A stretch of DNA of 64,000 bases from Vibrio penaeicida (GTDB taxonomy: Bacteria; Pseudomonadota; Gammaproteobacteria; Enterobacterales; Vibrionaceae). The DNA is taken from contig NZ_AP025145.1 in assembly GCF_019977755.1 (NCBI RefSeq), forward strand, positions 2,232,001-2,296,000, given 5' to 3'. The position numbers and the translations under genes are program-made. A model generated the notes under the pieces. It searched no databases and was not told the origin of the DNA. It was given only the letters and a program-made list of their open reading frames with translations. Within the stretch, counting starts at the first letter, position 1, and each line of letters begins with the position of its first letter. Of this stretch, positions 28,929 through 42,201 are shown piece after piece.

Positions 28929-29038
28929 CGGGATGTTCTCTCTGATTCAATTAATGCGAAAGATTGTATACCCAAACCAAGTCAAGATGCTAGATTCAGC
29001 GAGATTTGCTTGGCTTTGTTAGGTTTTACAAGGGGCGG

Positions 29039-29248
29039 CTAAGCCACACCCATAACTCTTTTATACTTTGCTACCGATTGCTCGAATAACTCGACTTCTG
29101 ATTCCAGCTTCAGTTTCGATTTGTGCTCAACCAACACTTCAGGGCCAGCCTGAGCTTGCTTGATTTTCCACACCAAAAACGAAGCTTGCTTGTCGATTTC
29201 TACTTCATTTTTCTCTTCAGAAGGAAGGAGTGAAAGGTTAAACGACAT
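29039..29248 (-). CDS. Small cytoplasmic protein, function unknown
   Basis: 69 residues from ATG 29248 (AGGT seven bases upstream); the longer frame to 29461 crosses sequence with no similarity and overlaps a gene remnant. The product is charged and mostly helical, with no TM segment. Family not recognised. Confidence 0.5.
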   Translation of the reverse strand: MSFNLSLLPSEEKNEVEIDKQASFLVWKIKQAQAGPEVLVEHKSKLKLESEVELFEQSVAKYKRVMGVA

Positions 29249-29407
29249 AGTAAGACCTGCATCGATAGTTTGAAAGGGCAAGAATATATCACAGCCTAAG
29301 CTGTTAGGTAGAGAGTTACAGGGGAATTCAAAAAGAAAAGTGACAGGAATCAAGAATGGGGGACAAGATGAACCTTGTAATTTAGGGGGGTTCTCCATAC
29401 CCAGTAA

Positions 29408-29671
29408 TTGCCAGATACCAATATCATGCGAGATGGAATCCAGTGGTATGTATCCGATCAACAGACCAAGAAAGCGATCATTTTGAGTGGTCTAGGCTGG
29501 GGAAGATTGCCTGAACATGAAGCAAATCTCGAAAAGATAGACAATAAGTTATTCGAAGTGAAGTCTCAGGAGACAATGCAAATACCTATTTATGTTGCAA
29601 AGGTAAAATCAAATTCTTTAGAACCGGTTGGAAATACGATCTGGAACTTTTTCTCTTTAATTAAACAATAA
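29408..29671 (+). pseudogene. 3' remnant of a LysR-family regulator gene
   Basis: The frame encodes the C-terminal end of a LysR effector domain (MRDGIQWYVSDQQTKKAIIL then SGLGWGRLPEH, as in the usual AGLGWGRLP-H motif) and stops at 29671. The DNA-binding domain and most of the effector domain are missing and no start signal is visible, so this is a leftover of a deleted gene. Confidence 0.65.
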
Positions 29672-30403
29672 ATCTAATGCTTCCCATAAAATTATTTAAT
29701 AGTAATAATTAAATTATTGAAATGTTATTACATATCAACTTTAACATTATAGATAATAATATTAAATATATAGATTTAAATTCAATACTCATTCAATTTA
29801 AATCTACACTTAAAATCTCTCATCTGAATTACGATCACATTTCACCTTGTATTATTTATTGTAAATAACGATCTTTATTCATCTTTCTAAAAGAAAATTC
29901 AATTTTATTAATAATCAGCAAGTTAGAGTATTAACTCTAACTTAATATTTACTAGAAATAATCAAAATACACTTAAAATACAGATAGTTACAAAAGAAAT
30001 CTTATCTCTATTAATATTAATTCATATTCATTCCTTACAGCTCTTATTATCTGTCGACGCTACACTAGTAACTTATTTATCAACAAAACTGAACTCCAAT
30101 GCTATCAAGTCCTGCCGAATAATATTGCTAAGGAAATTTTCTTTAACACATATTCTCATTCAAATTTCAAGTACCAGAATAGCCTCCGACTAGAGACATT
30201 TGTAATAAACCCAGCGTTTTATAAAATGATAATCACTTGGTTAGCAAGCCAATAAAGAATTAGGCTTAAACGCCAAGTAATAAAAGAATAGTCACTTAAA
30301 AAATTGAGTTATAAGCCTTACAGGCATCACTCATAAATAATTAAGAGTTTAGCAGTCCTACTTTCTCAAAATTTAGGACCCAAATAGCAATAAGGATAAA
30401 AGA
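29672..30403 (+). promoter_or_regulatory. Long AT-rich promoter region of vibriolysin 1
   Basis: 732 bases with no credible gene and strong AT bias. CTAGTAACTTATTTATCAACAA at 30065-30086 agrees with the LuxR/SmcR/HapR consensus (TTATTGATAAATTTATCAATAA) at 15 of 22 positions, mostly in the right half. TAAAATGATAATCACTTGG at 30222-30240 agrees with the Fur consensus at 13 of 19. Both are weak in such AT-rich DNA. Quorum-sensing control of vibriolysin genes is established in other vibrios. Confidence 0.35.
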
Positions 30404-32260
30404 ATGAATACTAAAATTGGACTTATTCCCTTGCTGGTCGGTATGGCTTTACCGACGACTGCACTTGCACAAGTGGATATTAATAACATCACAGAATCTG
30501 GACGCCCTACGTTTGCAGTTGGTGCATTGGGTGCCGCACAACTTAATGCTGATGTGGAAACGCTAAAACAGTACCTAGCAAATACCCCTTCCTACAAATC
30601 CACAGGTAACGAAGAATTTGTTGTGGAGCGCCAATGGGTCGACGAGCTTGGCAAAAAGCACACCGTATTTAACCAAACCATTGATGGTATTAAGGTACAC
30701 AACAGTCAAATTACGTTGCATACCGATGTCACACTTGGAAACGGTTTTGCTCCTGAGAATGAGTCTATCTACGCGGTGTCGGGAACGGTCGCAGTGCCGA
30801 CAGCATCACCTGCAACATTTGCACCTATACGTATGAGCAATGATGACGGTATACAAGCAAAATCGGTCGTTGAAAGCATTGGTGACGTCGTGACAGAGCC
30901 AGAGCTGGCTTACGTGTATCTTCGTGATATTGACGATACGAAATTGGCTTGGCGTATGGAAGTTAAATTCTTCCAGGGGTCTGGGCATTCTTTCGGACAC
31001 GATCTAGTGTACGTAGATGCACTTACTCATGAAATATTGTCCCGTGAAACCTTAATCCATCAAGCTAAGAACTGGAAAACACACACGTTAGATGGAGGAG
31101 ACTATCGCAGCCGACCAGGTAGGCTGCTTTGCACTAACCAAGAAGATTGTGGCAACAATCTATCGGCTCAACGAGCACATGATGGTGCGTCGACGGTGTA
31201 TGACTATTACAAAGAGAGACACAATCGAAATGGTTTAGATGATCGTGATATGACGATGATTTCGAGTGTGGACCTGGGTGTAGCGAATGCGTCGTGGTAT
31301 TTGGGACAAATGTTCTACGGTAAATCCAGAACAGGCGCCGATTACACAACAGATTTCGATGTCATTGGCCACGAGTTTACTCATGGCGTTATCGATTCAA
31401 CCGCCGATTTAATTTATCAAAACGCATCGGGCGCGTTAAACGAAGCGTGGGCAGACATTCTAGGGATCTCGGCAGAAGCGTATAAAAATGGCAAAACAAC
31501 CTCTACTTGGTTGCTAGGTAACGAACTGTATCAAAGGCCAGGGCAAGCGTTGCGCTATATGAACAATCCAACCAAAGATGGGCGTTCTAAAGACTGGTAC
31601 CCAGAGCGCAGACCTTTTGTAAAAAATCCGGGTCAGAATAATGACAATGGTTGGGTTCACCTAAACTCTGGTATCGCAAACCTTGCCTATGTTCTGTTAG
31701 TTGATGGCGGATCCCATCCACGTGGCAAGTCGGACGCGGTTGTTGATGGTATTGGTTTACTTCAAGCGGAAAAAGTATTCTACCGCGCGCTCAACACCTA
31801 CATGGGTCCAAACACTAATTTCCCTGAAGCTCGTACGGCAACAGCTCAAGCGGCGGCTGACCTATATGGCCAAAGTGCAAAACACTCTGTTGAAACAGCG
31901 TGGTGTGCAGTTGGCGTAGGTGAGTGTCCAGCAGCGATACCAACATCGGAAAAGCCAACATCACTTAGTGAAGCAGTAAGCGATATTTCCATTCCTTTGA
32001 ACGAATGGAAACACTACACGCAAGACTTGGGTGAAGGCTACTCCAAAATGACGATTAAAGCAGAGGGTGGCTTAGGTGATGTAGACCTATACGTAACCTA
32101 TGGAAAAGAATCGACAGCAACCGCATTCGATTGTGAGTCAAACACCACTTCCAATGCTGAGGAATGTGTTATTACAAACCCGAAAAAGGGCGCTTGGCAT
32201 ATTGATTTATTCGGTTATAAAGCGAGCTCTGGTGTCACGCTAACACTGACTGCAGAATAA
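30404..32260 (+). CDS. Vibriolysin-type M4 zinc metalloprotease 1
   Basis: 618 residues; secreted elastase-like endopeptidase (HapA/VvpE/EmpA group). Signal peptide to about residue 22, FTP/PepSY propeptide to about 195, then the thermolysin-fold catalytic domain with HEFTH (His323, Glu324, His327), the third zinc ligand Glu347 in ALNEAWAD, and the catalytic-site VHLNSGIANLAYVLLVDGG. One C-terminal PPC domain (about 535-618, GDVDLYVTYG, WHIDLFGYKASSGVTLT) is normally removed after secretion. The protein is exported by Sec and the type II system in relatives. It is paralogous to vibriolysin 2 (38254) but has one PPC domain and no poly-Pro linker. Confidence 0.95.
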   Translation: MNTKIGLIPLLVGMALPTTALAQVDINNITESGRPTFAVGALGAAQLNADVETLKQYLANTPSYKSTGNEEFVVERQWVDELGKKHTVFNQTIDGIKVHNSQITLHTDVTLGNGFAPENESIYAVSGTVAVPTASPATFAPIRMSNDDGIQAKSVVESIGDVVTEPELAYVYLRDIDDTKLAWRMEVKFFQGSGHSFGHDLVYVDALTHEILSRETLIHQAKNWKTHTLDGGDYRSRPGRLLCTNQEDCGNNLSAQRAHDGASTVYDYYKERHNRNGLDDRDMTMISSVDLGVANASWYLGQMFYGKSRTGADYTTDFDVIGHEFTHGVIDSTADLIYQNASGALNEAWADILGISAEAYKNGKTTSTWLLGNELYQRPGQALRYMNNPTKDGRSKDWYPERRPFVKNPGQNNDNGWVHLNSGIANLAYVLLVDGGSHPRGKSDAVVDGIGLLQAEKVFYRALNTYMGPNTNFPEARTATAQAAADLYGQSAKHSVETAWCAVGVGECPAAIPTSEKPTSLSEAVSDISIPLNEWKHYTQDLGEGYSKMTIKAEGGLGDVDLYVTYGKESTATAFDCESNTTSNAEECVITNPKKGAWHIDLFGYKASSGVTLTLTAE

Positions 32261-32270
32261 GCTTATTCAA

Positions 32271-32298
32271 GAAAGGCAGCAATTGCTGTCTTTCTTTT
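32271..32298 (+). terminator. Terminator of vibriolysin 1
   Basis: GAAAGGCAGC, loop AATT, GCTGTCTTTC (one G-T pair) followed by TTTT, ten bases after the stop codon. Confidence 0.8.
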
Positions 32299-33116
32299 CG
32301 TACCGCGCACCGTGCGTGCAAACTTTTATGTTTACCTAAATAATCTAAATTGTTATTTAATAACATAACAATTTAGATACTTATATTAATAGCAAACGTT
32401 TAAATGGGAATATGGCTATTTATCTCTTATAAACACTAAAGAGAAAATATAATAATCGCATGTGCTTATTTGAATTGTGATCACATTGGAATATGTAAGT
32501 TTTCGATAAACCAAGATCCCTGCCATGTTTCTATTTATTTTCAGTTAGTTGGTGAAATTAAAGTTTTTACTCTAAAAACAATTTAGTCATCAGCATATCA
32601 ACAAGAAGGAAAAGACCTTTAATTTCATAACATTAAAAGAAAAGTACGAATCAAATACGTTTGGTAGACAACGAGAAACACTCCATAACTCATCCAGTAT
32701 TCGCTAGGCTTAACGCATTATAATTTACATGATTATCAATAAATTCTGAAACCTATAGTCATCAATACTTATAGAGTAGGTAAGATAAAAAAACACAATA
32801 GCGATACATAAATACAGTAAAGTTTCAACCCACTAAATGTATTAACTGATTGAACTATTGTTAGCGTAAAATAACTCTAATAGAATCCTCTTCTCCCAAT
32901 CAGGAGAGGTTCCTTGTTTTATTTTAATCCTGACAAAATAAAACAAGGAATTAACAAAGAGTTTTAATTTAAAGATTTATCATCCAAGAATTATACGTAC
33001 GTATAGCCTTTTGCACACAACGTAAAGGGGCGGAGTCTGACTAGATAGTAGGCTCCAAACAAACCGAATTCTTAATATTTTTGCCATAAACATAATTATT
33101 GGTAGGGAGATTTTTT
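32299..33116 (+). promoter_or_regulatory. Long AT-rich promoter region of the propeptide-like gene
   Basis: 818 bases without a credible gene. TAATTTACATGATTATCAATAA at 32721-32742 agrees with the LuxR/SmcR/HapR consensus at 16 of 22, with a perfect TTATCAATAA right half. TTGTGATCACATT at 32475-32487 looks like two CRP half-sites fused without the 6-base spacer. CTCCCAATCAGGAG at 32894-32907 is a small hairpin. Function of all is unproven. Confidence 0.35.
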
Positions 33117-33824
33117 GTGAAAATAAAACCCATATTAATCGCGATAGGGTTAGCTGTGCCTTTATCTTTCTTTATTTTTAGCGATATATCTAACGATCCA
33201 AATACATCGCTAGATACCAATTCTTCTAAAAATTTAAAAGCGAGCAGAAGCTCTGAAGAAAGCAGCATTCTTGACAAACAAGCGGGTCGAAAAAAGCAAG
33301 AGAGTGGCAATCATCACGCAGCGAAAATAGATGAACCCATTCATTTAGAAACGCAAAGCAAGAAAAGCGCTCATGAGGAAGAAAAATCGCTTGAGGAAAC
33401 AAGAGTACATGAAGACAAATCTCATGAGCCAATAAGCTTGGAACAAGCTTGGATAGATGTAAATCCAAGCGAAACACTTGTAAGCATAAGACCTAAAGGT
33501 GAAGCCATAGAAAGTATTAAAGCGATTGAGTTTTCGAATGTATCAGAATTCCAATCTCTAAATACAAATGACAACGTGACTCTCAACTTACCGGATAACA
33601 CTGACATTGATATCGAAGTGGAATCAAACGAATTTCAAAATGAAGGTGTAAGAACTTGGTCGGGGAATTTCAAAATTGATAATCAGAACTACCCAGCCAC
33701 CTTCACTTTTGGAAGTTCTTCAATTTTTGGTTTTATTGGTCACCCTAATGGTCCAATTAAAATTGAAGGCTCTGGAAACACTGCATGGATTTATGAAGTC
33801 CCAGATACTCATGGATACGACTAA
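33117..33824 (+). CDS. Separate propeptide-like protein preceding the M12 protease
   Basis: 235 residues from GTG 33117 (GGGAG eight bases before). An N-terminal signal or anchor (KIKPILIAIGLAVPLSFFIF) is followed by a Lys/Glu/Ser-rich linker to about residue 110. The C-terminal 120 residues (VTLNLPDNTDIDIEVESNE, GVRTWSGNFKIDN, YPATFTFGSSSIFGFIGHPN, GNTAWIYEVPD) resemble the N-terminal propeptide normally fused to reprolysin-like zinc proteases. The next gene, 63 bases on, is such a protease with no propeptide of its own. The likely role is a chaperone or inhibitor acting in trans. The family match is by pattern only. Confidence 0.6.
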   Translation: MKIKPILIAIGLAVPLSFFIFSDISNDPNTSLDTNSSKNLKASRSSEESSILDKQAGRKKQESGNHHAAKIDEPIHLETQSKKSAHEEEKSLEETRVHEDKSHEPISLEQAWIDVNPSETLVSIRPKGEAIESIKAIEFSNVSEFQSLNTNDNVTLNLPDNTDIDIEVESNEFQNEGVRTWSGNFKIDNQNYPATFTFGSSSIFGFIGHPNGPIKIEGSGNTAWIYEVPDTHGYD

Positions 33825-33887
33825 TTAATAAATGCAGTTCAAATAAAAACAAACTAATTAATTAAAGATACTATTTTAGGATTTAAA

Positions 33888-35111
33888 ATGAAAAAAACGT
33901 TATTAGCGGCGATTGTTGCGTCGAGCTTTGTTGCACCACTTGCACACGCAACAACGAATATTGATGTACTGGGTGTTTACACAACAGAAACCGCGCAAAA
34001 AATTGACCACATCACTGCTATTCAACATCGTTTCAATGTTGGTAATAAGATTCTTAAGGACAGTAAGCTAGACATAAGAGTCAATCTCGCTGGGCTGAAA
34101 GAATACAACTTCGACTCCGAGCCCGGTAGAAAAAAAGAGCAAGATGTTGCTTTGAAAGCGATGACACCTGGATATAACCAGTCCGCGTTGTTCCGCGATA
34201 TCGAGCAAGTAAGAAAAGATGAAGGCGCGGATATGGTAGCTATGTTCCGCTATCTAGACCTCGACAACTCTCCGGATTACGAACGCACCGCCAATGGTTA
34301 TAGCATCAGCTGTGGTGTGGCTTGGGTAATACCAGCATTTCATTGGGATGGTGACCAATCTTGGGCGAAAAGCAGAATGTACAGCCATACCTACATTAAC
34401 GAATGTGGTGGTGATACGTTTATTCACGAATTAGGTCACAACTTTGGTATTTACCACGCACGTGAGCAATACAACAGTTTGCCTCATCTCGAAAGTGGAG
34501 CAGAAAAAGATGCTTATGGTTATGGCGTAAACGGGCAATTTGCAACGACAATGGCTTATGGGTACCTTTTCGGTATAAAAGGGCGTTCTTACAATTTCTC
34601 TAACCCAGAAGTAGAGTGTAAAGGTCAACCATGTGGTCGCAAAGGGGTAGCAAATGCCGCTCGTGCTATTGGTCTAACCGCACCTAAAATTGCCAATATC
34701 TATCAAAGTAAAACCGATGGTACGGATACAGGTAAACCGACTCAGCCAATCGATCCTAAAGAACCCAACAACATCTTTAAAATCGACTCCCCTGTAGCAA
34801 TTCCAGACCAAGCTCAGGTAGACATTCCTCTTAAGGTGTCCTTCGAAGGCGAGATCACCAAACCAACAATCGCGCTAAACGTGGAACATGAGTTCATTGG
34901 TGATTTGTCTATTCGACTTATTGCGCCAGATAATAGCTACTGGATTTTGAAGAAAGCGAACAGTAGAGATCGTGGTGAAAAATACAATGTTACTTTCACC
35001 TTGCAAGATATTGAAGGTATCGACTTCAACGGTCAGTGGACACTGCGTGTTACGGATAAGTTCGAACGAGATACTGGCGTAGTTAAAAGCGCCGTTCTAA
35101 CCCTTAAGTAA
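33888..35111 (+). CDS. Reprolysin-like (M12) zinc metalloprotease with P/homoB domain
   Basis: 407 residues. Signal peptide (cleavage after HA, about residue 21) leads straight into the catalytic domain (TTNIDVLGVYTTETA); no propeptide is present. The zinc site is HELGHNFGIYH (His180, Glu181, His184, His190), with MAYGYLFG as the expected Met-turn. Two cysteine pairs are visible (SCGVAW/NECGGD and VECKGQPCG). After a Pro/Asp-rich linker (about 275-290) comes a P/homoB jelly-roll domain of about 115 residues (VEHEFIGDLSIRLIAPDNSY, FNGQWTLRVTD). Secreted; likely activity held by the propeptide-like protein encoded just upstream. Confidence 0.88.
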   Translation: MKKTLLAAIVASSFVAPLAHATTNIDVLGVYTTETAQKIDHITAIQHRFNVGNKILKDSKLDIRVNLAGLKEYNFDSEPGRKKEQDVALKAMTPGYNQSALFRDIEQVRKDEGADMVAMFRYLDLDNSPDYERTANGYSISCGVAWVIPAFHWDGDQSWAKSRMYSHTYINECGGDTFIHELGHNFGIYHAREQYNSLPHLESGAEKDAYGYGVNGQFATTMAYGYLFGIKGRSYNFSNPEVECKGQPCGRKGVANAARAIGLTAPKIANIYQSKTDGTDTGKPTQPIDPKEPNNIFKIDSPVAIPDQAQVDIPLKVSFEGEITKPTIALNVEHEFIGDLSIRLIAPDNSYWILKKANSRDRGEKYNVTFTLQDIEGIDFNGQWTLRVTDKFERDTGVVKSAVLTLK

Positions 35112-35116
35112 TCCGT

Positions 35117-35152
35117 ATACCCAAGAACTCTAGAGGTTCTTGGGTATTTTTA
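35117..35152 (+). terminator. Terminator of the M12 protease gene
   Basis: A perfect 12-bp stem ATACCCAAGAAC / GTTCTTGGGTAT around loop TCTAGAG, followed by TTTTT. It belongs to the same short palindrome family as 12929-12962. Confidence 0.9.
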
Positions 35153-36065
35153 TTAGAAAGAGTCAGACAAATAACACGCATAAGGAGAAGAAAATGAATT
35201 AAGATTTGAATATTAATTTACGTTACTGTATAACATAACAATATTAATTCTGTTGTTTACAGGAAGGCAAACGTTAAACAATGAAATATGTATTTTCATT
35301 CTCATTATTGGAATGACATAACTCTGACATTAATTATAGTAATTCCTGAATAGTTATCACATGAAATTAATGAAACGAATGAAAAATACAATTTTAAAAT
35401 TGGCTCAACTCGTTACTTTGGGATAAAAATAAAGTATAAGTCTTTCAATTACTTATGCTTTAGATATGTAAAAGCGCACAGCAATCCGTTTAATTCATAT
35501 ATCATTAATTCAATTATAAGTTTATATATATCAATAAGTTGAAAATTAAACTCTTATTCAACGCAACATTGATCTCATTTATTCTTAATTTTTTACCCTT
35601 ATTCATCTTCTGTTCACGTGATTTCTACTAGGGATGATTGCTAGGGGAATGGAAAATATTTTTTACACTCTTTGCTGTATCGCCTATATACCAAGCATAT
35701 TTCGTTATACACGTACCGTAAAAAAACACCAATAAACATATTAGATAACACCTGTCAACATAATAAGGTTTTCTAAATTCTTCTGAAATTTGTTTTTTCT
35801 CACACCATTGATAACAATCTCTGTACTCAGTCACTGATACGGCTGTGTATTTGATTAATTCGAACTTTCTAAAGTGGGATAGGGTTTGGCTCTATTTCTG
35901 TTTTCTTTTGATGCTTGAGGAAAATCATATTTTCAACAAACATTAATAAGCTAATTAATAGCTATAGTCACATGACTTATAAAATATAATATTGAGTTAT
36001 ATAAGTGTTCACTTATTTTAGTGGGTATAGGCTTTTTTTAACTTTAATAATTTCGGGAATAAGAA
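35153..36065 (+). promoter_or_regulatory. Long AT-rich promoter region of the aminopeptidase gene
   Basis: 913 bases of AT-rich sequence. A 68-codon minus-strand frame at 35628-35834 lacks a convincing ribosome site and known motif. ATAAGTTTATATATATCAATAA at 35516-35537 is a weak LuxR-type match (15 of 22, low complexity). I see nothing else firm. Confidence 0.35.
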
Positions 36066-37967
36066 ATGAAAGTTAAGTATTTGTTACTCGTCACAGCAAT
36101 TAGCGCTACAAATTCAATCGCTAGCCAAAACACTATAAATCCAAACGAACCAACAAAAGCTTGGATAACAATTGGTAGCGACGCAATTCAACACTTTACA
36201 ACAGCGCAAGAACACAAAGGGTTGGCTTTTTCATCTCAAACAGTACAAGGCGTTAATGGCATTACCGTATCGGAGATTAATACCGCCGATATAAACAATT
36301 TGAGTGAGCTCATGCACCATGAATTCAAACGCTGTGGTGGATTCTTTTATCACGATTCGTTTGAAGAAGCGCAGGCATACGCGAAACAAGCCGCGAATGC
36401 GAATCAGAGCTTTGCCAATTTTGCAGCCGTTAACTACACCATCGATAACGAGTCTGTCACCAATGCGATGATGTCAGAAACGTCACAGCAAAACCTAACC
36501 AATACCGTCAATACATTATCCAATTACTACGATCGTTATTATACGTCTCAGTCGGGTTACGACGCTGCAAAATGGATAAAGGATCATTGGGTTCAACTTT
36601 CGCAGGCACGCAGTGATATCAGTGTGGAATTTTTTAATCACAGCTGGAAACAACCTTCTGTTATCGCAACGATAAATGGTACAACTCTTGCCGACGAAAT
36701 CGTCGTTATCGGCGGGCACCTAGACTCCATCAATACACGAAGCCCAGGTAACGAATCCGCCCCAGGTGCGGACGATAATGCTTCTGGTATTTCTGTTCTC
36801 ACTGAAACGCTAAACGCGATCGTTAAAAGCGGATTTAAGCCTAAGCGTACCGTTAAAATCATCGGTTATGCCGCAGAAGAAGTCGGGCTACGAGGTTCTA
36901 AAGCCATCGCCCAGTCTTACAAAAGCTCTGGTAAGAATGTGGTGGGTGTCGCTCAGTTTGATATGACGGGCTATAAGGGGACATTTAATCGCGACATCGT
37001 ACTCATCACTGACTACACCAATTCAGGACAAAACCAGTTTATTCGAAACCTGATCAACAAATACTTGCCGAATATGACGCACGGTAATTCGCAGTGTGGT
37101 TACGCGTGTTCCGACCACGCCTCTTGGTACAATGAGGGCTTCCCTGCTTCTATGCCAGCTGAAGCAAATTTCCACGATTCGAACCCACTCATCCATACAG
37201 CAAATGATACCCAATTTGACTCAAGCCATGCGATTAAGTTTGCCAAACTGTCCGTTGCCTTCATTTCTGAACTCGCTAAAGGTACGATTGCAGGAACCCC
37301 TCCACCACCGCCACCTACTGGCGAAAACGAACTGCAAAATGGTGTGGCAAAAACCAACATATCTGGGGTAGCTAAAGCGCAAAACTTTTATACGTTTAAC
37401 GTTCCAGCAGGGGCTTCCAACCTGAAATTCACAACATCAGGCGGAACTGGCGATGCAGATTTATACGTAAAATTTGGCTCCAAGCCAACACTTAACAGTT
37501 ATGACTGTAAAAGCACCAACAGTTCAAACAATGAACAATGCCAAATTCCAAACGCACAAGCGGGAACCTACCATGTGATGGTCGAGGCTTGGTCTTCGAT
37601 ATCTGGCGTATCTCTTACAGCAAGCTATACCGACAGCGGTAACCCACCGCCTACAGGCATTGAACCCATTAACGAAACGGCTACTAATATTTCTGTTTCT
37701 CGTGGTCAGTGGCAACGCTACACCCAAACACTAGGCGAAGGTTATTCAAACCTAACCGTCACGATATCGGGTGGATCAGGCGATGCAGATCTGTACGTTC
37801 GCCATGGCGCTCAATCTACGTTTGGGCAACACGACTGCCGACCTTACCTCAATGGGAATAATGAAAACTGCCCAATCACGTCACCGCAATCTGGCGTTTG
37901 GCATATCGACATCTACGGATATTCAACAACGACAGGGCTAACGCTCAATATCAAAGCCACACCATAA
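36066..37967 (+). CDS. Secreted M28 leucyl aminopeptidase with two PPC domains
   Basis: 633 residues. Signal peptide (cleavage near IASQ, residue 20), an N-terminal propeptide to about 150, then the M28 catalytic domain with zinc ligands and base in VVIGGHLDS (His218, Asp220), GADDNASG, GYAAEEVGLRGS, QFDMTGY and CSDHASWYNEGFPA. Two C-terminal PPC domains follow (TGDADLYVKFGSKPTL and GDADLYVRHGAQSTF), joined by Pro-rich linkers. It removes N-terminal amino acids from peptides released by the neighbouring endoproteases. GGGAAT precedes the ATG. Confidence 0.93.
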   Translation: MKVKYLLLVTAISATNSIASQNTINPNEPTKAWITIGSDAIQHFTTAQEHKGLAFSSQTVQGVNGITVSEINTADINNLSELMHHEFKRCGGFFYHDSFEEAQAYAKQAANANQSFANFAAVNYTIDNESVTNAMMSETSQQNLTNTVNTLSNYYDRYYTSQSGYDAAKWIKDHWVQLSQARSDISVEFFNHSWKQPSVIATINGTTLADEIVVIGGHLDSINTRSPGNESAPGADDNASGISVLTETLNAIVKSGFKPKRTVKIIGYAAEEVGLRGSKAIAQSYKSSGKNVVGVAQFDMTGYKGTFNRDIVLITDYTNSGQNQFIRNLINKYLPNMTHGNSQCGYACSDHASWYNEGFPASMPAEANFHDSNPLIHTANDTQFDSSHAIKFAKLSVAFISELAKGTIAGTPPPPPPTGENELQNGVAKTNISGVAKAQNFYTFNVPAGASNLKFTTSGGTGDADLYVKFGSKPTLNSYDCKSTNSSNNEQCQIPNAQAGTYHVMVEAWSSISGVSLTASYTDSGNPPPTGIEPINETATNISVSRGQWQRYTQTLGEGYSNLTVTISGGSGDADLYVRHGAQSTFGQHDCRPYLNGNNENCPITSPQSGVWHIDIYGYSTTTGLTLNIKATP

Positions 37968-37982
37968 AATAGTGGCGCTTCA

Positions 37983-38010
37983 CTGCCCTTTTCGAATCGG
38001 AAAAGGGCAG
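37983..38010 (+). terminator. Hairpin after the aminopeptidase gene
   Basis: CTGCCCTTTTC (37983-37993) and GAAAAGGGCAG (38000-38010) form an 11-bp stem 16 bases after the stop codon. The T-run is poor (ATTAAAC), so termination efficiency is uncertain. Confidence 0.6.
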
Positions 38011-38186
38011 ATTAAACACATCCAAATTTGATGAGTTTGTCATTGCATGAACTATTTCCTATGCCGTTTTAGTTAATAGAACAGCATGAATAAGCACATC
38101 AAATTAATACTGAAATAGATAATAAAATCTTTGGTATTAATGGAATAACGTCTCTTTTTAAATAAAAGAATACGTATAAGGAAACC

Positions 38187-38264
38187 ATGAATATTCATGG
38201 TGGATGGAATGTTGGAGATATCCAGCGATCCTTTAAATACAGGAAAATAAATCATGAAGTTTAA
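38187..38264 (+). CDS. Candidate 25-residue upstream ORF of vibriolysin 2
   Basis: ATG 38187, four bases after AAGGAA, opens a 25-codon frame whose TAA stop (38262-38264) lies 8 bases inside the vibriolysin coding region, overlapping its ATG at 38254. Such overlap would couple the two translations. The start codon also sits in a perfect 18-bp palindrome (ACCATGAATATTCATGGT, 38184-38201) that could hide it in a hairpin. No conserved product is recognised. Confidence 0.4.
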   Translation: MNIHGGWNVGDIQRSFKYRKINHEV

Positions 38265-40464
38265 AATAGGAATTATCCCCTTAGTGGTCGGTATTACATT
38301 ATCGACCTCTGCTTTCGCACAGATGGAAATAAAAACAGCGACAGATACTGGGCGACCTTCATTTGTCACTGGGAACTTAGGTAATGCAACTGCAGGTGCT
38401 GAAGTTCAGGCGTTAAAGCAAATTCTGGCCAGCAACCCATCGTATAAGTCGACGGGAAGCGAAGAATTTGAAGTTTCTCGCCAATGGGTTGATGAACTGG
38501 GGAAAAAGCACACGTTTTTTGATCAGAAAATTAATGGCATTAAAGTCTATGGCAACAGTATTGCTTTGCACACAGAAGTCAGCAATAACGCTAACGGCTT
38601 GCTGAACAATGCCCCTGTTTATGCGGTAACAGGCGCACTCGCGGTTTCTTCTGCTCCGGCTTCGGCTGCGTTTGCCACCAAGCAAAGTAATGACAATGGT
38701 AAACAGGCTCGCTCAGTTGGAGAAAGTATTGGCTCAGTTCAAACACAACCTGAACTGGCTTACATCTACTTGCCGGATCAAGACGAAGCAAAACTCGCTT
38801 GGCGTATGGAAGTCGTCTACTTTGCAGGTGCTGGACCATTTGGTCGTGACATAGTTTACATTGATGCCGCAACCAATGAAGTGCTCGCACGACATGCACA
38901 GGTACACTCGGCAAAGAGTTGGAAAACGTACACCCTTAACGGCGGTAATCAAAACTCTGCACCAGGGCAACTGCTTTGTACGAACAACCAAAATTGTGGC
39001 GGCAACGCTGCGGCGCAACGCGCTCATGATGGTGCAGCAACAGTTTACGATTATTACCAACAGCGACATGGTCGTGACAGCCTCAACAACAACGGGATGA
39101 CGTTGGTATCCAGTGTCGACCTTGGTGAGCAAAATGCGTATTGGACTGGTTCGCAAATGCTTTATGGTCAAGCTGGTGGCGGGGTTGATTACGATTTCAC
39201 CTCAGATTTCGACATCATTGGTCACGAGTTTACGCACGGTGTCACCAACTTCTCTGCCCGTCTTGTTTACCAAAATGCACCTGGTGCATTGAATGAAGCA
39301 TGGTCAGATATTCTTGGTCTATCCGCAGAAGCGTTCAAAAATGGTACAACGACATCCAGCTGGTTACTAGGCGACGGTTTGTACAACCAACCCGGTAAAG
39401 CTTTCCGCTACATGAACGATCCCACCAAAGATAATTACTCAAAAGACTGGTACCCAGAACGCATACCGTTCAGCAATAATCCTAACAGAGACAACGATTA
39501 TGGCGGCGTACACGGCAACTCCGGTATTGCGAACTTAGCGTACGTATTGCTTGTAGACGGTGGAACACACCCTCGCGGAAAATCCAATGCACAAGTGCCA
39601 GGCATCGGTATGCTCAAAGCTGAGAAAATCTTCTATCGCGCGCTGGTCACCTACATGAACCAAAACACCAACTTCTCGGGTGCTAGAACAGCAACCGCTC
39701 AAGCAGCGCAAGACCTGTATGGCGCAACAGAGAAAAACGCTGTTGAAACCGCTTGGTGTGCCGTTGGTGTGGGCGATTGCCCTACAACAACACCGCCTCC
39801 ACCGCCCCCTACTGGCGATAACGAACTGCAAAATGGCGTTCCTGTAACGGGGATTTCAGGCGCAGCGAAAGATCAGAAATTCTACACATTCCAAGTTCCT
39901 GCGGGCGCGACAAACTTGCGTTTCGTTACAATGGGCGGCTCGGGTGATGCGGACCTTTACGTAAAATTCGGCTCCAAGCCATCGCTAAGCACTTACGATT
40001 GTAAGAGCACCACCAGCTCAAGCAACGAAACCTGTGCGATCAGCAATATCCAAACGGGCACTTACCATGTCATGGTTGAAGCTTGGAATCAGATAAGTGG
40101 CGTAACTTTAACTGCCAGCTATGATGGTGGTACAACACCTCCGCCGCCACCTAGCGGACCAACACCAATCTACGACACACTGGGCAACATCTCTGTTGGC
40201 GGTGGTCAGTGGCAACGCTTCACTCAAGAATTAGGTACGGGCTATTCAACCATGACGATTACCACGTCTGGCGGGTATGGTGATGTCGATTTGTATGTTA
40301 GAAAAGGTTCCGACCCTACACTCTACCAATACGACTGCCGTCCTTGGAAAAATGGCAACAATGAATCTTGTACGTTTACCAACCCTGGTGCAGGCACTTG
40401 GCACATCGGTATTTACGGTTACTACAATAGCTCTGGCGTCACATTAACGCTGACAGCAGAATAG
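38254..40464 (+). CDS. Vibriolysin-type M4 zinc metalloprotease 2
   Basis: 736 residues, closely related to the product at 30404. Signal peptide, FTP/PepSY propeptide, catalytic domain with HEFTH (His324, Glu325, His328), Glu348 in ALNEAWSDILG, and VHGNSGIANLAYVLLVDGG. After residue about 508 a poly-Pro linker leads to two PPC domains (GSGDADLYVKFGSKPSL and GYGDVDLYVRKGSDPTL). The first linker/PPC unit is nearly the same as that of the adjacent aminopeptidase, suggesting domain exchange. Secreted endopeptidase; expression may be affected by the overlapping upstream ORF. Confidence 0.95.
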   Translation: MKFKIGIIPLVVGITLSTSAFAQMEIKTATDTGRPSFVTGNLGNATAGAEVQALKQILASNPSYKSTGSEEFEVSRQWVDELGKKHTFFDQKINGIKVYGNSIALHTEVSNNANGLLNNAPVYAVTGALAVSSAPASAAFATKQSNDNGKQARSVGESIGSVQTQPELAYIYLPDQDEAKLAWRMEVVYFAGAGPFGRDIVYIDAATNEVLARHAQVHSAKSWKTYTLNGGNQNSAPGQLLCTNNQNCGGNAAAQRAHDGAATVYDYYQQRHGRDSLNNNGMTLVSSVDLGEQNAYWTGSQMLYGQAGGGVDYDFTSDFDIIGHEFTHGVTNFSARLVYQNAPGALNEAWSDILGLSAEAFKNGTTTSSWLLGDGLYNQPGKAFRYMNDPTKDNYSKDWYPERIPFSNNPNRDNDYGGVHGNSGIANLAYVLLVDGGTHPRGKSNAQVPGIGMLKAEKIFYRALVTYMNQNTNFSGARTATAQAAQDLYGATEKNAVETAWCAVGVGDCPTTTPPPPPPTGDNELQNGVPVTGISGAAKDQKFYTFQVPAGATNLRFVTMGGSGDADLYVKFGSKPSLSTYDCKSTTSSSNETCAISNIQTGTYHVMVEAWNQISGVTLTASYDGGTTPPPPPSGPTPIYDTLGNISVGGGQWQRFTQELGTGYSTMTITTSGGYGDVDLYVRKGSDPTLYQYDCRPWKNGNNESCTFTNPGAGTWHIGIYGYYNSSGVTLTLTAE

Positions 40465-40507
40465 ACAGTAAACAACTCGTAAGATAAAAAATCCAAAATG
40501 TAATTTG

Positions 40508-40532
40508 AGAGGGGCAGTAAAGCCCCTCTTTT
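40508..40532 (+). terminator. Terminator of vibriolysin 2
   Basis: GAGGGGC, loop AGTAAA, GCCCCTC, then TTTT, 45 bases after the stop codon. Confidence 0.88.
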
Positions 40533-40758
40533 CTGTTATCAAACCCAACCCATCGAATTTATCTATCAAAGCTATAAATATAATCGAATATACCTTTCAA
40601 AGTGTAAAGGGTAGCCTTAACTTGTTCTTAATTAACCCTGATTTAAATAGGGATTATGTAGTCGATGTACTAGATTATTAATGGCTATGTTTCTTTGTTT
40701 TCGGATTGTCCTATGGTCAACGAATTCATCTAAAAAAATACACTGTAAGGAATATATT

Positions 40759-42201
40759 ATGAGTAAGAAGCTAACGACCGCAGCAGGTTGCCCTGTTGCA
40801 CATAACCAGAATGTTATGACCGCTGGCCCGCGAGGACCGCAACTTCTTCAAGATGTTTGGTTTTTGGAGAAACTGGCTCATTTTGACCGTGAAGTAATCC
40901 CTGAAAGGCGTATGCACGCCAAAGGATCTGGCGCTTACGGCACCTTCACAGTGACACATGATATTACTCAATACACTCGGGCAAAAATCTTCTCAGAAGT
41001 AGGGAAAAAGACCGACTTGTTCGCACGTTTTACTACCGTCGCCGGAGAACGAGGCGCAGCAGACGCAGAACGGGATATTCGTGGTTTCGCGCTTAAGTTT
41101 TACACCGAGGAAGGCAACTGGGATTTGGTTGGAAATAACACCCCTGTGTTCTTTTTACGAGACCCTCTAAAGTTCCCCGATTTGAACCACGCGGTAAAAC
41201 GCGACCCAAGAACCAATATGCGAAGCGCAGTAAATAACTGGGACTTTTGGACATCTTTGCCTGAAGCTTTCCACCAAGTCACCATAGTTATGAGTGACCG
41301 AGGCATTCCTGCCAGCTACCGTCACATGCATGGTTTCGGGAGCCATACGTTCAGTTTTATTAATGCAGACAGTGAACGTTACTGGGTGAAATTCCACTTT
41401 AAAACACATCAGGGCATCAAAAACTTAACCGACGAAGAAGCCACCATTTTGTGTGGACGAGATAGAGAAAGCCATCACCGCGATCTTTATGACAACATCG
41501 AAAACGGAAACACGCCTAAATGGACCATGTACGTTCAAATCATGCCGGAGCTGGAAGCCGATGAGGTCAATTTCAACCCATTCGATTTGACCCGCGTGTG
41601 GTCTCAGAAAGATTATCCGTTGATCGAAGTGGGCGAGCTGGAACTTAATCGCAACCCAGAAAACTTCCACGCAGAAGTTGAACAGTCGGCATTTAACCCA
41701 GCTTCCATTGTTCCGGGTATTGGTTTTTCCCCAGATAAAATGCTTCAAGGTCGTTTGTTCTCTTACGGTGATGCGCAGCGTTATCGTTTAGGGGTAAACC
41801 ACCATCAGATCCCTGTGAATGCGCCAAGATGCCCAGTGCACAGCTACCACCGTGATGGTGCGATGAGAGTCGATGGCAACTACGGTTCCACCATTGGTTA
41901 TCAGCCAAATTCACAACAAGAGTGGGAAGAGCAACCCGATTACTCCGAGCCACCGTTGCGTATTTCTGGTCATGCGGATCATTACGACCACCGTGTAGAC
42001 GAAGATTACTTTACTCAGGCCGGCGATCTTTTCCGCCTGATGGATGAGCAAGAGCGACAACGTTTGTTTGATAACACCGCCCGTTCCATCAAAGGGGTAC
42101 CCGACTTCATACAGCAACGTCATATTGACCACGCGTATCAAGCAGACAAGGCATACGGTGAAGGGTTAGAGAAAGCCATTAAAAAAGCAAACGCATCATA
42201 A
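40759..42201 (+). CDS. katA: Monofunctional heme catalase (small-subunit, clade 3)
   Basis: 480 residues from ATG 40759 (AAGGAA seven bases upstream); the longer frame to 40681 has no start signal. Catalytic His53 lies in [20 protein letters not shown], the active-site Asn in the [10 protein letters not shown] region, and the proximal heme Tyr336 in [14 protein letters not shown]. No C-terminal flavodoxin domain, so it is a small-subunit enzyme converting hydrogen peroxide to water and oxygen, probably cytoplasmic. A very short ORF and a terminator follow. Confidence 0.95.

What the first reader, a model, noticed from the sequence alone, without database searches (positions are those of the whole stretch)
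33117..35111. Reprolysin-like protease whose propeptide is a separate upstream gene
The M12 protease at 33888 has an intact HELGHNFGIYH zinc site and P/homoB domain but begins its catalytic fold directly after the signal peptide. The gene 63 bases upstream encodes an exported protein whose C-terminal 120 residues look like the propeptide normally fused to such proteases (YPATFTFGSSSIFGF, WIYEVPD). A split propeptide would have to act in trans as a secreted or anchored chaperone or inhibitor, and its Lys/Glu-rich linker and N-terminal anchor could place it in the inner membrane. I do not know of a described example in this protease family.
Basis: partly seen in the sequence, partly recalled or inferred. 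Interest (0 to 1): 0.72.

Follow-up and report, generated by a model that had tools for sequence, protein, structure and literature searches.

The report
Protease with separately encoded propeptide chaperone
A marine bacterium makes a secreted zinc protease without the usual built-in folding segment and, from the gene just before it, a membrane-anchored helper that is a relative of that segment; such pairs are known in a few bacteria, but I did not find the family link between the helper and the built-in segment in print.

Summary
The 235-aa protein at 33117-33824 has a hydrophobic N-terminal anchor, a Lys/Glu-rich linker and a ~128-residue domain. That domain is homologous to the N-terminal propeptide region fused to related M12 metzincins: a profile built only from 42 fused regions finds it at E 6e-16. 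The protease at 33888-35111 starts its catalytic fold at residue 22.

The claim that no example is described is wrong. As part of a 20-member profile the upstream protein matches CpaB, the membrane-anchored type II secretion chaperone of CpaA: the only significant PDB match, 6o38, E 2e-8. More distantly it joins BamI, partner of P. aeruginosa Mep72. The gene before mep72 was listed as a putative anchored chaperone in 2016.

Not found in print is that CpaB, BamI and fused M12 propeptides are one family, fused in some lineages and split in others. Of 44 proteases with a short N-terminus, 37 have the domain in a same-strand neighbour. The own genome holds a second pair. One relative has the domain beside a trypsin-like protease. 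Function is inferred; no structure prediction started, because the queue was full.

The parts
33117..33824 (+). membrane-anchored trans-acting propeptide / chaperone, CpaB-BamI type (235 aa, GTG start)
   Evidence: ORF and start; fused-propeptide profile E 6.4e-16; CpaB 6o38_G E 2.1e-8 with the 20-sequence profile that includes it; paralogue in own genome E 1.9e-33
33132..33188 (+). hydrophobic N-terminal anchor (residues 6-24)
   Evidence: best 19-mer Kyte-Doolittle mean 2.26 at residue 6
33189..33437 (+). polar Lys/Glu/Ser-rich linker (residues 25-107)
   Evidence: 27% K+E
33438..33821 (+). propeptide-like domain (residues 108-235), ending on an Asp that is aligned to the conserved D-x-x-x-P Asp of fused and standalone relatives
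   Evidence: alignments; Asp column
33825..33887 (+). 63-base intergenic stretch, AGGA before the protease start, no terminator-like hairpin reported in it
33888..35111 (+). reprolysin-like (M12/M72-type) metzincin without own propeptide: signal peptide, catalytic domain, P domain
   Evidence: Pfam, NCBIfam Mep72 E 2.9e-39 over residues 25-294, below cut-off
34425..34457 (+). zinc site HELGHNFGIYH (residues 180-190)
   Evidence: sequence; H180 E181 H184 G187 H190 invariant among 5 proteases
34866..35099 (+). P / homoB domain (residues 327-404)
   Evidence: P_proprotein E 2e-14
35117..35147 (+). terminator-like hairpin closing the two-gene unit
   Evidence: 13-bp stem followed by a T-rich tail

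Best explanation
The two genes are a protease and its split-off propeptide. The upstream product is a single-pass inner-membrane protein whose C-terminal domain sits in the periplasm on a flexible charged linker. It catches the metzincin as it leaves Sec, helps it fold or stay stable, covers its active site with its C-terminal tail, and lets go when the protease is passed to the type II secretion system; the anchor keeps the helper behind. It is a member of the CpaB/BamI kind of chaperone, and that kind is homologous to the propeptide fused to other M12/M72-type metzincins. Shown here: the homology, the conserved pairing, a hydrophobic anchor by hydropathy, the lack of a fused propeptide, and a GspD in the genome. 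Inferred from CpaB and BamI: the binding, folding, covering and release steps.
For: The fused-only profile finds 21 of 21 standalone proteins, the window's at 6.4e-16; the standalone-only profile finds 25 of 50 fused regions at E 4.3e-5 or better (two proteins counted twice). The 20-sequence standalone profile has one significant PDB match, CpaB; CpaB's fragment ranks first of 2001 (itself and 2000 shuffles) with the standalone and with the fused-only profile. The top PDB match of the joint profile is CpaA, 2e-18, mostly through the catalytic domain. Of 44 proteases with a short N-terminus, 37 have a fused-profile hit in a same-strand neighbour; of 1643 other ORFs 15 hit, and each of these lies beside a protease ORF outside the 44. 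In 148 genomes of the genus the domain (E<=1e-10, 12 genomes) and the protease (E<=1e-30, 11 genomes) coincide in 11. Paired distances correlate, r 0.89 over 22 pairs. The own genome holds a second pair and a GspD. From print: BamI binds Mep72 and relieves its toxicity in E. coli, and Mep72 leaves by type II secretion; CpaB's anchor holds it in the membrane and its tail reaches the catalytic site.
Against: No function was tested and no structure could be predicted. A profile of 14 fused domains alone did not list CpaB in the PDB at E up to 10. By hhalign CpaB's fragment matches the pooled standalone set (2.5e-7) and the Microbulbifer-type proteins (1.4e-8) but hardly the fused set (3.6e-4, probability 37%), and not the Vibrio-type (0.027), Cellvibrio-type (0.028) or BamI-type (0.012) groups on their own. 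Vibrio-type and Pseudomonas BamI-type proteins do not match each other directly (0.007-0.008); the link runs through the fused and Cellvibrio-type proteins. The link of the window's protein to CpaB and BamI is thus transitive. 5 of 46 short-N proteases had no neighbour hit with either profile. One relative carries an orphan copy (L165) and one pairs the domain with a trypsin-like protease (L164), so the tie to metzincins is not absolute. Two genomes of the genus have weaker, shorter proteases without a significant domain. A review passage states that CpaB does not block CpaA activity, which speaks against the covering step as full inhibition.
Confidence: 0.8

Rival explanations
1. The upstream protein is only a safety inhibitor, like AprI for AprA: it binds the folded protease and blocks it in the periplasm but has no part in folding or secretion.
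For: BamI is named an inhibitor and relieves Mep72 toxicity; its authors compare it with AprI and leave its mode of action open.
Against: Its domain is homologous to fused propeptides, and the relative CpaB is needed for stability and secretion of CpaA. A review passage states that CpaB does not block CpaA activity.
Confidence: 0.12
2. The N-terminus is a cleaved signal peptide and the protein is secreted together with the protease as a non-covalent pro-form.
For: A related upstream protein, L050, looks by eye as if it had a signal peptide; removing the CpaB anchor lets the CpaA-CpaB complex be secreted.
Against: The window's hydrophobic stretch is followed by a long polar linker with no obvious cleavage site (by eye; no signal-peptide program was run). 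Of 23 standalone proteins scored, 20 have a 19-residue stretch with a mean above 1.3 near the start; L009, L047 and L054 do not as read.
Confidence: 0.06
3. Two independent genes that happen to be neighbours; the domain likeness is a chance likeness between small beta-rich domains.
For: 5 of 46 short-N proteases have no matching neighbour, and an orphan copy exists.
Against: Shuffled controls, the pairing, and the paralogous pair in the own genome.
Confidence: 0.02

Closest known systems
CpaB-CpaA of Acinetobacter (membrane-anchored type II secretion chaperone and M72-type metzincin; PDB 6o38)
   Same: Single N-terminal anchor, periplasmic C-terminal domain homologous by profile (E 2.1e-8), gene adjacent to that of a secreted metzincin.
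   Different: In Acinetobacter the chaperone gene lies downstream. CpaA carries four Ig-like repeats instead of a P domain. CpaB was assigned by its authors to an SRPBCC-like domain, not to propeptides.
BamI-Mep72 of Pseudomonas aeruginosa (PA2782-PA2783)
   Same: Upstream gene, GTG start, short gap (78 bp in print), two-gene operon, Sec signal on the protease, type II export. A close relative, L118, shows 219 and 599 aa, GTG and a 76-base gap.
   Different: Mep72 ends in two carbohydrate-binding domains, not a P domain. BamI-type proteins are only distantly related to the window's protein.
Propeptides fused to other bacterial M12/M72-type metzincins
   Same: Same domain and the same conserved Asp.
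   Different: Part of one polypeptide with the catalytic domain; no separate anchor.
ORF2, external chaperone of the propeptide-deficient serine protease ASP of Aeromonas sobria
   Same: External chaperone of a secreted protease; its C-terminal region contacts the catalytic site.
   Different: Subtilisin-type serine protease, chaperone encoded downstream; homology to the window's protein was not tested.
Lipase-specific foldases (Lif/LipB) and RhpC
   Same: Anchored (Lif) or partner (RhpC) proteins for secreted or exported enzymes.
   Different: Lifs serve lipases; RhpC is cytoplasmic and its partner is an M4 protease. Homology was not tested.

Membership tests
CpaB/BamI-type membrane-anchored protease chaperones | C-terminal domain homologous to CpaB | tested here: met
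   Profile of 20 standalone proteins including the window's: 6o38_G E 2.1e-8, only significant PDB match; CpaB first of 2001 with three profiles. The window's protein alone finds no such match, and the Vibrio-type group alone does not match CpaB by hhalign (0.027).
CpaB/BamI-type membrane-anchored protease chaperones | N-terminal transmembrane anchor | tested here: met
   Hydropathy only, 2.26 at residue 6; no topology program was run.
CpaB/BamI-type membrane-anchored protease chaperones | encoded next to a secreted metzincin | tested here: met
   63 bases upstream; 13 of 13 domain-protease pairs in 11 genomes of the genus lie upstream on the same strand, read off the coordinates.
CpaB/BamI-type membrane-anchored protease chaperones | type II secretion system in the host | tested here: met
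   GspD 532 bits, over cut-off; the rest of the system was not searched.
CpaB/BamI-type membrane-anchored protease chaperones | needed for stability or secretion of its protease | not testable with these tools
   Needs a gene deletion.
M12 (reprolysin-like) metzincins | HExxHxxGxxH zinc site in a reprolysin-like domain | tested here: met
   Reprolysin_3 1.1e-16, over cut-off; zinc site invariant.
Mep72 (NCBIfam NF052434, equivalog) | score over the curated cut-off of 645 bits | tested here: not met
   135 bits over residues 25-294 only.
CpaA (NCBIfam NF033511) | score over the curated cut-off of 750 bits | tested here: not met
   20.3 bits.
Fused M12 propeptide family | sequence homology to the region between signal peptide and catalytic domain | tested here: met
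   E 6.4e-16 with a profile that contains fused regions only.
AprI-type metzincin inhibitors | homology to AprI | not tested
   No AprI profile was compared; the PDB lists name no AprI chain.

The most novel reading that the evidence does not exclude
CpaB, BamI and the window's protein are propeptides that became separate, membrane-anchored genes, several times, from fused M12-type proteases; the same anchored domain was then re-used for at least one protease of another class, a trypsin-like one. Type II secretion chaperones of proteases would thus be detached propeptides, and a conserved Asp behind the domain would be the part that reaches the zinc in both the fused and the split form.
Probability: 0.55. 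Interest if true: 0.68.

Novelty: new member of a known kind. Interest (0 to 1): 0.55.

Why it matters
It suggests an origin for a chaperone class whose mechanism is open. If CpaB and BamI are detached propeptides, then the question whether BamI inhibits its protease or only keeps it from its targets (left open by its authors) can be put as a propeptide question, and the CpaA-CpaB complex becomes a model for the latency of fused M12 propeptides, for which the PDB search with fused domains listed no relative. The membrane anchor offers a reason why splitting pays: the helper stays behind and could be used again. Naturally fused relatives give paired alignments for modelling such complexes.

Tried and rejected
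Rejected: chance neighbours; see the rivals. Rejected: the pair as a strict Mep72 or CpaA family member (cut-offs not met). Rejected: the RhpP-RhpC pair as a near relative (M4 protease, cytoplasmic helper). The plasmid collection gave no match for the upstream protein. The window's protein alone finds nothing meaningful in Pfam, NCBIfam or the PDB. Rfam has no match over 29000-41000. The 199-aa and 198-aa neighbours of the short proteases in G872 and G780 look similar by eye but do not stand out from shuffles, so they are not counted. Four matches at 6e-4 to 8e-4 in very long proteins of the genus were not followed. The ORF after the L091 protease and probably the one before the L094 protease are front parts of broken-up proteases, not helpers. 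In the tree 12 partial proteases and 13 loci (duplicates, near-copies, long-ORF and no-domain cases) were left out, four states were set by hand to split (L117, L119, L061, L055) and four to fused-plus-neighbour (L029, L074, L077, L091); the direction from fused to split rests on a midpoint root and is not shown. In the group comparison two of the pseudomonad neighbours (L113, L114) dropped out of the script. One search left out L041 and L074 on purpose, and pairs whose protease was partial. Structure prediction was asked for 16 times and never started.

Full report
Observation. The window carries a GTG-started gene at 33117-33824 (235 aa) and, 63 bases on, an M12 protease at 33888-35111 (407 aa). 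The protease has a signal peptide (by eye), a reprolysin-like domain with HELGHNFGIYH and a P domain; its catalytic profile starts at residue 22, so nothing the size of a propeptide lies before it. The upstream protein has a hydrophobic start (mean 2.26 over 19 residues), a Lys/Glu/Ser-rich linker and a C-terminal domain of about 128 residues. A terminator-like hairpin follows the protease and none was reported between the genes.

Is the domain a propeptide? From these and from loci of genome searches I took the region before the catalytic domain of every protease where it begins 120-420 residues in, without regard to any match: 50 regions, 42 of them 120-300 residues long, which made the profile FUS. 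Seventeen standalone proteins made the profile SEP. FUS finds 21 of 21 standalone proteins (worst 2.6e-4; the window's 6.4e-16; best of 1050 shuffles 0.063). SEP finds 25 of 50 fused regions at 4.3e-5 or better (best 1.2e-20; best of 1000 shuffles 0.054); two proteins are in the 50 twice (L021 = L027, L022 = L028). Profile against profile gives 2.9e-16 (all). Earlier single-profile hits agree: three fused proteins in the class search (seen) and the table.

Is it tied to the protease? With FUS only, 37 of 44 proteases whose catalytic domain begins within 120 residues have a hit (E<0.01) in a same-strand neighbour. The seven misses are L042, L056, L075 and four pseudomonad loci (L112, L113, L117, L119). 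Of 1643 other ORFs in these loci 15 hit, each beside a protease ORF outside the 44: partial, duplicate, or with its catalytic start beyond residue 120. At least one of the 15 (L091) is the front part of a second, broken-up protease rather than a helper. With both profiles, which partly contain these same proteins and so are circular here, 41 of 46 short-N proteases have the neighbour and 48 of 55 long-N proteases carry a hit inside, six of these with a neighbour as well; two of the 48 (L055, L061) are weak and probably over-extended ORFs; 12 partial proteases were left out. In 148 genomes of the window's genus the domain profile matches 16 at 1e-3 and 12 at 1e-10; the Mep72 family matches 13 at 1e-15 and 11 at 1e-30; all of these 11 are among the 12 (Fisher 9e-16 on that table, with species that are not independent). 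The other two of the 13, G872 and G780, have shorter proteases and no significant domain. The own genome has a second pair: a 32%-identical helper and a 51%-identical protease without the P domain. Distances of helpers and proteases run in parallel (r 0.89, 22 pairs, 0 of 2000 permutations as high), as shared descent alone would also give.

What is known of its kind. The profile of 20 standalone domains has one significant match in the PDB, CpaB of 6o38 (2.1e-8); a profile of six gave 0.0066 and a profile of 14 fused domains did not list it. CpaB's fragment stands first of 2001 sequences with SEP (27.4 bits, next 8.3) and FUS (15.8, next 5.5); by hhalign it matches the pooled standalone set (2.5e-7) and the Microbulbifer-type group (1.4e-8), the fused set only at 3.6e-4, and the Vibrio, Cellvibrio and BamI groups not at all on their own (0.012-0.028). 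CpaA is the top PDB match of the joint profile (2e-18). From passages of PMC7542363: CpaB is membrane-bound, CpaA's stability and secretion depend on it, loss of the anchor lets the complex be secreted, and its tail lies in the catalytic site like the zymogen segment of related enzymes. A passage of PMC9952577 says CpaA activity is not blocked. PMC4713064 (passages; section 15 in full) lists the gene before mep72 (printed PA2872) as a putative anchored chaperone, 77 bp apart, helix 5-24. PMC4334185 (abstract, passages, discussion and section 16) reports that BamI binds Mep72, relieves its toxicity in E. coli, and that Mep72 leaves by the Xcp type II system; the word propeptide occurs only in its reference list. 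PMC4222646 was seen in passages, PMC5638518 in passages, PMC6490944 in abstract and passages.

Pseudomonads. In the family of a genome picked by its OprF, taken to be Pseudomonadaceae, 23 of 348 genomes have a Mep72-type protease at 1e-30, 18 of them over the family's cut-off. Each of the 29 loci has a same-strand gene of about the right size next to the protease. In the five loci below the cut-off it matches at about 1e-42; in 22 of the 24 over it the best match lies between 0.011 and 2.5e-8; in L117 and L119 it is no better than 0.2. L118 fits the published BamI-Mep72 in lengths (219, 599), GTG start, signal-peptide end and gap (76), but has 19 Ala in the first 60 residues where PA2782 has 23; it is taken as a near relative, its organism unnamed. 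BamI-type and Vibrio-type proteins do not match directly (0.007-0.008) but both match the fused ones (1.2e-9 to 1.6e-9, and 5.9e-15) and the Cellvibrio ones (4e-8 to 1.1e-6, and 4e-15).

Evolution. In a quick tree of 88 catalytic domains all 39 split ones fall into one 51-row group (SH-aLRT 93) with 10 fused and 2 unassigned ones; the fewest changes between fused and split, unassigned rows not counted, are four. Fused forms fill the rest but for one unassigned row, from Acidobacteriota, Planctomycetota, Actinomycetota and others. This fits several splits from a fused ancestor, but the root is a midpoint, 13 loci were left out and some states were set by hand.

A possible working part. Just behind the domain an Asp, mostly followed four residues on by Pro, is nearly fixed: Asp in 10 of 10 fused rows with a letter there (1 gapped) and in 10 of 10 standalone rows with a letter (3 gapped); Pro at +4 in 10 of 11 fused rows and 6 of 9 standalone rows with a letter. 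In the window's protein the last residue, an Asp, is aligned to it, though the alignment around it is gappy. Since CpaB's tail enters the catalytic site, I infer that this segment may be what covers the zinc. No model could be made to check it.

Re-use. In one genome of the genus (G786) a 253-aa anchored protein of the family (SEP 1.4e-15, FUS 1.2e-5) overlaps by ATGA the end of a gene for a trypsin-like protease (Trypsin_2 2.5e-9, Trypsin 1.8e-7; L164). No other of 148 genomes matches that protein at 1e-3. So the family is not bound to metzincins, on one case.

Verdict. The pair is a new member of a known kind, the CpaB/BamI type of anchored protease chaperone; the new point is that this kind is homologous to fused M12 propeptides. 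Searches that did not find this in print: in a library that lacks the two main CpaB papers, so it may have been said there. How the window's protein works is inferred from its relatives.

Noticed in passing
L164:2934-5452 (G786): A trypsin-like protease gene overlaps by ATGA a gene for an anchored protein of the same chaperone/propeptide family: the module beside another protease class.
   Followed up: partly
window 30404-40464: The pair sits in a row of secreted-type peptidase genes on one strand: M4 (30404), M12 (33888), M28 (36066), M4 (38254), three of them with PPC domains.
   Followed up: no
L165:8520-9185 (G818): An orphan copy of the helper gene (221 aa) with no protease ORF next to it, about 3 kb from an intact pair.
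   Followed up: partly
L020:142-2226 (G308): A fused form in which a long Ala/Glu-rich stretch, probably helical (by eye), separates propeptide domain and catalytic domain.
   Followed up: no
L029:337-900 and L084:2180-2788: Neighbour genes of the family that start, by eye, with a lipoprotein-like signal (a Cys soon after the hydrophobic stretch): a possible other way of anchoring the helper.
   Followed up: no
L029, L074, L077: Loci where a protease with a fused propeptide also has a neighbour gene with the domain; in L074 another protease ORF lies on the other side of it.
   Followed up: no
L055:2449-3933: In a planctomycete the domain is the C-terminal part of a 494-residue ORF upstream of the protease.
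   Followed up: no
L113-L116, L127-L129, L132: Four genomes of the pseudomonad family carry two Mep72 genes about 4 kb apart on opposite strands, each with a helper-sized gene before it, some of them weak matches.
   Followed up: no
L161:856-1455 and L162:869-1465: Short M12 proteases followed by a 199-aa and a 198-aa single-anchor protein that look like the helper by eye but do not score above shuffles.
   Followed up: partly
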